Of a stretch of 22,934 nucleotides of DNA, positions 8,427-8,721 are shown piece after piece. Below the pieces are notes generated by a model. That model did no database searches. It had not been told where the DNA came from and saw only the letters and a list, made by a program, of their open reading frames with translations. Position 1 is the first letter of the stretch, and every line of letters starts with the position of its first letter. The stretch is from Burkholderia gladioli (GTDB lineage: Bacteria > Pseudomonadota > Gammaproteobacteria > Burkholderiales > Burkholderiaceae): assembly GCA_009914575.1 (NCBI GenBank), contig WNEB01000004.1, positions 1-22,934 of the forward strand, written 5' to 3'. Both the position numbers and the translations under genes were made by a program.

Positions 8427-8430
8427 TGAT
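8427..8430. repeat. Target-site duplication (one copy) of the hisC insertion
   Basis: TGAT at this position and TGAT at 8700-8703 flank the 269-bp element exactly. Removing the element and one copy restores a continuous hisC frame reading MMTPQDIIRPDVLAM. That is strong internal evidence for transposition into hisC. Confidence 0.75.
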
Positions 8431-8699
8431 GCCTGGCTCTCTTGAAATTTGAGTGGGTGAAAAGGGCCGCCGGGGTACGAAAACCTACGTCGCAAAACGG
8501 TATCTTCCCGCCCCTAGCCCCGCCCCAAGGCGGGGAAGTCCTCGCCGCCGGACGGGCTCGGGGGCCAGGCGGCGCAAGGCTTTGCCTGGCCCGAGCCCTC
8601 AAGCGTGCTCGTAGATTTCTCCGCATCAAGGGTTCGCTGCGCCGGGCTTCGCCCGCCCTTGACCCGGAAAAATCCACCCAATCGAAATTCAAGAGAGGC
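8431..8699. mobile_element. 269-bp MITE-like element inserted in the first codons of hisC
   Basis: The two ends are imperfect inverted repeats. From TCTCTTGAA inward, 20 of 24 positions match, including TGGGTG on both sides; the left end carries four extra bases near its tip. The element is flanked by a TGAT duplication and encodes no transposase, which fits a non-autonomous miniature element. Internal structure is dense: a CCCCGCC/GGCGGGG hairpin at 8518-8535, a long stem 8554-8570 with 8584-8598 built on GGGCTCGG and GCCAGGC, and a TCAAGGG/CCCTTGA stem (8626-8632, 8656-8662) enclosing CGGGC-TTC-GCCCG. The family and the source transposase are not identified. Confidence 0.8.
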
Positions 8700-8721
8700 T
8701 GATGTCTTGTGGCGTCATCAT
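8689..8721 (-). pseudogene. Original hisC start, now a 10-codon mini-ORF
   Basis: ATG-ATG-ACG-CCA-CAA-GAC-ATC encodes MMTPQDI, which matches the expected HisC N-terminus. Three codons further, inside the insertion, the frame meets TGA at 8689-8691 (reading SLS then stop). The native hisC start therefore now yields only a short peptide, with the remaining hisC coding sequence starting about 270 bases downstream. Confidence 0.75.

What the first reader, a model, noticed from the sequence alone, without database searches (positions are those of the whole stretch)
8427..8703. A 269-bp MITE-like element sits inside the first codons of hisC
The sequence shows imperfect ~24-bp terminal inverted repeats (20 of 24 positions match), a TGAT direct duplication at both borders, no coding capacity and several internal hairpins. 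Removing the element and one TGAT restores MMTPQDIIRPDVLAMTSYPV, which fits the HisC N-terminus of relatives. It is a non-autonomous element caught in a core biosynthetic gene, possibly from an undescribed family. The nested stems would fold strongly in the his mRNA.
Basis: partly seen in the sequence, partly recalled or inferred. Interest (0 to 1): 0.75.

Follow-up and report, generated by a model that had tools for sequence, protein, structure and literature searches.

The report
Mini-transposon inserted at start of hisC
A 265-letter piece of mobile DNA that encodes no enzyme of its own, and whose ends match a known jumping-gene family (ISL3), sits in the first codons of a histidine-synthesis gene of a Burkholderia-type bacterium; the kind is known, but this family and its folded core look new.

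Summary
The element is window 8435-8699 (265 bp); its 25-bp end repeats match at 21 of 25 positions, and the target duplication is 8 bp, not 4: TGATGCCT/TGATGTCT, 7 of 8. The nearest relative aligns to both flanks with exactly an 8-bp overlap, and 25 of 25 same-genus loci lack the insert. Two further copies, 98% identical, with 7/8 and 8/8 duplications, lie on one beetle-metagenome contig that is itself Burkholderia-like. Autonomous elements with the same ends and 8-bp duplications encode ISL3-family transposases. So it is a MITE of the ISL3 family, a kind already reported in Microcystis. It ends the native hisC frame after 10 codons; hisC may restart at GTG 8415 or ATG 8406. Unexpected: its core holds hairpins whose pairs co-vary across relatives, and this module also lies at 21 places where no ISL3-type end was found in the stretch held. 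No Rfam family matched it in the stretches tested. An RNA role is not supported: G-U cells do not exceed A-C cells.

The parts
8435..8699 (.). 265-bp non-autonomous ISL3-type MITE
   Evidence: Ends and 8-bp duplication; two 98% identical copies on L065; uninterrupted site in relatives
8427..8434 (.). target duplication, left copy TGATGCCT
   Evidence: length set by the 8-bp overlap of the flank alignments to L022
8700..8707 (.). target duplication, right copy TGATGTCT (7 of 8 match; the single copy in L022 reads TGATGTCT)
8435..8459 (+). left terminal inverted repeat GGCTCTCTTGAAATTTGAGTGGGTG
   Evidence: same type of end in ISL3 elements L011, L012, L021, L068
8675..8699 (-). right terminal inverted repeat GCCTCTCTTGAATTTCGATTGGGTG
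8518..8535 (+). hairpin 1 (CCCCGCC/GGCGGGG)
   Evidence: alignment A1 of 7 loci; single-sequence folds; coordinates
8538..8553 (+). hairpin 2 (GTCC/GGAC), also in TIR-less loci L008, L014, L067
   Evidence: alignment A1; coordinates
8554..8598 (+). hairpin 3, variable paired arm
   Evidence: 24 of 34 sites tested: at most 5 of 100 shuffles as good; the window itself: 6 of 100, so not among the 24
8599..8681 (+). linker with AGCGTG plus hairpin 4 (paired stem 8614-8674), the most conserved module
   Evidence: alignment A2 and pair counts, model R1 (the window is one of its 22 training rows), coordinates
8689..8721 (-). native hisC start, now reading MMTPQDISLS and a stop inside the element
7378..8415 (-). 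remaining hisC frame (345 aa from GTG 8415; next in-frame ATG at 8406)
   Evidence: the closest database HisC, 97% identical, is 356 aa

Best explanation
It is a non-autonomous miniature transposon (MITE) of the ISL3 family. An ISL3-type transposase made elsewhere would bind the paired GGCTCT.TTGAA...AGTGGGT ends, move the 265-bp piece and duplicate 8 bp of target. Shown: the ends, the 8-bp duplication, the uninterrupted site in relatives, other copies at other sites, and autonomous ISL3 elements with matching ends and duplications. Inferred: movement in trans, and which element does it. Effect (inferred from the sequence): translation from the native hisC start ends after 10 codons in the element, so HisC is either made 11 to 14 residues short from GTG 8415 or ATG 8406, or lost, perhaps with cover from a distant paralogue.
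For: Ends 21 of 25. Flanks align to L022 with an exact 8-bp overlap at the insertion; 25 of 25 same-genus loci are uninterrupted there. Two more copies on L065 with 8-bp duplications GGAATGCC/GGAATTCC (7/8) and TGAAAGGT twice (8/8). A 286-bp relative in L066 has ACTAATGA twice (8/8), a 274-bp one in L001 has 6/8, and L002, interrupted by another transposase frame, has 8/8. Autonomous elements of 1410 bp in L011, L012, L016 (same element as L012 at another site), L021 and L068 have perfect 8-bp duplications. Three of their 408-aa proteins were scanned: DDE_Tnp_ISL3 at 1.8e-66 to 7.6e-65; the two scanned with NCBIfam match ISL3 model NF033550 at 7.1e-92 and 2.8e-94. They share 79-95 bp of the right end with the window element at 81-87% identity, and end repeats of the same type.
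Against: Not every relative has a duplication: L052 matches 3 of 8 (by eye), the ISL3 copy L074 4 of 8, and for L010 and L015 only a right end was recognised. No ISL3 transposase of this type was found at E up to 1e-20 in the nearest genome G001, in G102 or in G339, and the window's own genome is not held, so the helper is not identified. No full-length copy was found in the 65 held genomes of the genus, only two partial matches. Movement was not observed.
Confidence: 0.93

Rival explanations
1. The element is primarily a conserved hairpin cassette (structured RNA or palindromic DNA) with a function of its own that has been packaged between ISL3 ends; the MITE is its vehicle.
For: The core, hairpins 1-4, matches TIR-less loci at 70-77% (L008, L014, L067). 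Hairpin 4 co-varies: 13 of 23 pairs change on both sides (1 of 500 shuffles as high), co-variation score 0.276 against 0.108 (0 of 500). 23 of 30 loci scanned, 21 distinct places, show no ISL3-type end in the stretch held. An ISL3 element whose protein is 73% identical, L110, lacks the module, so ISL3 elements do not need it.
Against: G-U cells do not exceed A-C cells (12 against 20), so there is no RNA signature. The number of further pair types is not exceptional (44 of 500 shuffles as high). No constant partner gene was seen. Related sequences can exceed shuffles without any structure. Some stretches scanned for ends are cut short by contig ends.
Confidence: 0.2
2. Simple deletion derivative: an ISL3 element of the 1410-bp type lost its transposase gene, and hairpins 3-4 are just its leader region.
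For: Right end of 79-95 bp at 81-87% identity with the 1410-bp elements; upstream hairpins in the same place in L011, L012 and L021 (at most 1 of 100 shuffles as good; L068 21 of 100).
Against: Hairpins 1-2 and about 100 bp of the interior match TIR-less loci and other MITEs but none of the autonomous elements compared (L011, L012, L021, L068, L074, L110).
Confidence: 0.45
3. A conserved hisD-hisC spacer or attenuator rather than an insertion.
For: It lies between hisD and the rest of hisC and folds strongly.
Against: Absent from 25 of 25 same-genus loci; exact 8-bp overlap in L022; near-identical copies elsewhere.
Confidence: 0.01

Closest known systems
187-bp MITE of Microcystis aeruginosa attributed to ISL3 (PMC11448079; passages seen)
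   Same: Short, imperfect inverted repeats of the GGCTCTT type, 8-nt duplications, stem-loop, ends shared with an ISL3-family element, found in a gene (sbp)
   Different: Ends GGCTCTTCG rather than GGCTCTCTTGAA; a cyanobacterial host; its authors note two putative open reading frames; the sequences were not compared here
   Same: Same type of terminal repeats, 8-bp duplications, hairpin 4 at the right end
   Different: They encode a 408-aa transposase; hairpins 1-2 were not found in them
Tn3-derived miniature elements (TIMEs, PMC4133298; search listing only)
   Same: Non-autonomous elements moved in trans (recalled)
   Different: Other ends and 5-bp duplications (recalled)

Membership tests
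MITE (miniature inverted-repeat transposable element) | Short (under about 600 bp) and without a transposase gene | tested here: met
   265 bp; longest stop-free stretch 88 codons
MITE (miniature inverted-repeat transposable element) | Terminal inverted repeats and target duplication | tested here: met
   21 of 25 and 7 of 8
MITE (miniature inverted-repeat transposable element) | Several dispersed copies | tested here: met
   Window plus two copies on L065; the copy number in the window's own genome could not be tested
ISL3 family | DDE_Tnp_ISL3 transposase in the autonomous relative | tested here: met
   3 of 3 proteins scanned; 2 of 2
ISL3 family | 8-bp target duplication | tested here: met
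   misses: L052 3/8, L074 4/8, L010 and L015 no left end recognised
ISL3 family | Inverted repeats beginning GGCTCTT or similar | tested here: met
   compared with GGCTCTTCG in PMC11448079
ISL3 family | Movement by the ISL3 transposase | not testable with these tools
   needs an assay
Rfam RNA family | Match to a curated covariance model | tested here: not met
   Window 8200-9000: two weak matches at E about 0.4, below gathering scores and outside the element; 11 loci: none at E up to 0.5

The most novel reading that the evidence does not exclude
A co-varying multi-hairpin cassette of Burkholderiales mobile DNA, without an Rfam match in the stretches tested, spreads both alone and inside ISL3-type ends; the hisC element is such a cassette packaged as a MITE, and the cassette, not the transposon, carries the function (for example a 3'-end structure: in L008, L014, L067 and L084 it follows a gene on the same strand, though other sites do not show this).
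Probability: 0.2. Interest if true: 0.6.

Novelty: new member of a known kind. Interest (0 to 1): 0.36.

Why it matters
It adds an ISL3-type MITE family in Burkholderiales with a clean natural uninterrupted site for comparison in a biosynthetic gene, and it points to a conserved hairpin module shared by MITEs, ISL3 right ends and loci without ISL3 ends that matched no Rfam family in the stretches tested. Such alleles let one ask how a core gene tolerates an insertion in its first codons.

Tried and rejected
Searches used a mis-spaced pattern (my error, one N too few) and found 0 in the genome contigs and in the window; the corrected pattern found the window copy and 2 records. It is an exact pattern with a limited spacing, so it misses relatives such as L066 (286 bp). 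Viral contigs and phages gave nothing. A 4-bp duplication was rejected in favour of 8 bp. Promoter and terminator scans of 8300-9000 found none. A pseudoknot between the linker AGCG and CGCT in hairpin 4 was considered by eye and dropped, because its last pair breaks without compensation in several rows of A2. An RNA-level constraint was tested by G-U against A-C cells and not supported. A constant partner gene for the module was sought among 20 neighbouring frames, 10 of which matched any Pfam family, and not found. A text search for 14 letters of the module core found 0 papers. A search joining Lagria villosa, Burkholderia gladioli, transposase and Luteibacter found 0 papers.

Rows dropped: one search listed only end pairs with at least 5 of 8 matching flanks; one search tried 24 loci and 22 gave a sequence; one search left out the false or antisense matches (in L014, L048, L051, L061, L067, L133) and sites with under 90 bases upstream, leaving 34 of 45.

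Full report
What is there. The window carries a Burkholderia-type his operon on the minus strand (gene names by my reading of the frames). Its closest HisC in the protein database is 97% identical and 356 aa long; the closest named ones are B. gladioli (86%) and B. plantarii (83%). The element lies at 8435-8699. Its ends, GGCTCTCTTGAAATTTGAGTGGGTG and (other strand) GCCTCTCTTGAATTTCGATTGGGTG, match at 21 of 25 positions (tool result for the inner 23 nt: 87%). It is flanked by TGATGCCT and TGATGTCT.

Insertion. Of 30 relative loci fetched with the hisD end, 28 gave a hisC match. All 25 of the same genus read straight through the site; the other three are too distant at the N-terminus to judge; two gave no match. 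The nearest relative, L022, aligns to window 6935-8434 (95.6%) and 8700-10798 (94.1%) with an overlap of exactly 8 bases, and its single copy of the target reads TGATGTCT. This fixes the duplication at 8 bp; the simplest history is an insertion after the split from G001.

Other copies. The corrected end-pair pattern found two records among the genome contigs. One is a Luteibacter-labelled MAG from the Lagria villosa egg metagenome (accession series WNDO in PMC7042692; data-availability passage seen). Its contig L065 carries two copies, 264 and 265 bp, 98% identical to the window's, with duplications of 7/8 and 8/8. Five kilobases of that contig are 97% identical to G001, the window's own nearest genome, and 87-88% to the 12 other members of the genus in that search; over 5.5 kb the identity to G001 is 95.6%. 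The contig is therefore most likely misbinned Burkholderia of the window's clade. The other record, L052, is a 275-bp element, 62% identical, in a Burkholderiales MAG with 20 partial matches on 16 contigs, many at contig ends; a copy split between contigs or matched at both ends is counted more than once, so the copy number is uncertain. Full-length relatives also lie in L001 (Sulfuricystis plasmid, 274 bp, 6/8) and L066 (286 bp, ACTAATGA twice). L002 looks like such an element interrupted by an IS3-type frame (the label IS3 is my reading of the frame). None of 65 held genomes of the genus has a full copy; 26 of 399 genomes of the order have some match at E up to 1e-3; 24 plasmid records match in part, none over 80% of the query; phages and viral contigs gave none.

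The helper. Elements of 1410 bp in L011, L012, L016, L021 and L068 have the same type of ends and perfect 8-bp duplications. Of their 408-aa proteins three were scanned and are ISL3 transposases. L110, 73% identical in protein, has ATTTTTCT on both sides. Misses: L052 3/8, L074 4/8, and L010 and L015, where only a right end was recognised. No such transposase was found at E up to 1e-20 in G001, G102 or G339.

Effect on hisC. In the hisC frame the native start now reads MMTPQDISLS and a stop. Insert plus duplication is 273 bp, 91 codons, so the frame downstream is kept, but the element holds four stops in that frame. The first in-frame ATG, GTG or TTG starts are GTG 8415 and ATG 8406. A distant HisC paralogue (32-35%) was found at E up to 1e-30 in 5 of 6 related genomes searched, the nearest included. 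Whether HisC is made is open.

The hairpin module. The interior can fold into four hairpins. Hairpin 4 with its linker was aligned over 22 sites, out of 48 distinct sites listed (24 loci tried). 84.0% of cells pair, against 72.8% in shuffles (0 of 500) and at most 45.0% when slid. 13 of 23 pairs change on both sides (1 of 500), the co-variation score is 0.276 against 0.108 (0 of 500), but the number of further pair types is not exceptional (44 of 500). Related sequences can exceed shuffles without structure; the slid controls also fall far short. Model R1 scores the window, one of its training rows, at 83.9 bits on the plus strand and 18.2 on the other. It matches 11 of 101 relatives and 6 of 369 genomes of the class at E up to 1e-3, and 21 of 399 of the order at 1e-8, with one to five matches per genome; only a capped number of candidates per genome was scored, so these are lower bounds. 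Of 45 sites, 34 were tested for hairpin 3; in 24 at most 5 of 100 shuffles did as well. Of 30 loci scanned, 23 (21 distinct places) show no ISL3-type end at 14 of 18 or better in the stretch held, some of which are short. Neighbouring frames with Pfam matches include a relaxase, an integrase, IS110 and DDE transposases, an Abi_alpha gene, a glycosyltransferase and a CoA transferase, with no constant partner. G-U cells (12) do not exceed A-C cells (20), so an RNA role is not supported; a palindromic DNA element is at least as likely.

Verdict. A MITE of the ISL3 family: a new family as far as the searches go, of a known kind. The module is the only part that could prove more than that.

Noticed in passing
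L065:1-19374 (record NZ_WNDO01000045.1): A contig labelled Luteibacter is 97% identical over 5 kb to the nearest Burkholderia genome (95.6% over 5.5 kb): probably misbinned.
   Followed up: partly
L065:5960-7594: One copy of the element sits in a frame that stays open through it (544 aa); the downstream part resembles a DNA methylase by eye only. The window's element has a stop-free frame of 88 codons on each strand.
   Followed up: no
window:8427-8434 and 8700-8707; L065:6122-6129 and 6394-6401: Both imperfect duplications differ at the same position, the sixth of eight. Chance or a feature of the insertion; not explained.
   Followed up: no
L002:140-1656: Apparently an ISL3-type MITE interrupted by an IS3-type transposase frame, with an intact outer 8-bp duplication.
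   Followed up: partly
genome G103 (L052, L094-L109): A 275-bp relative with partial matches on 16 contigs, many at contig ends.
   Followed up: partly
window:7487-8692, minus strand: A 401-aa frame reads through the element but not in the hisC frame; likely spurious.
   Followed up: no
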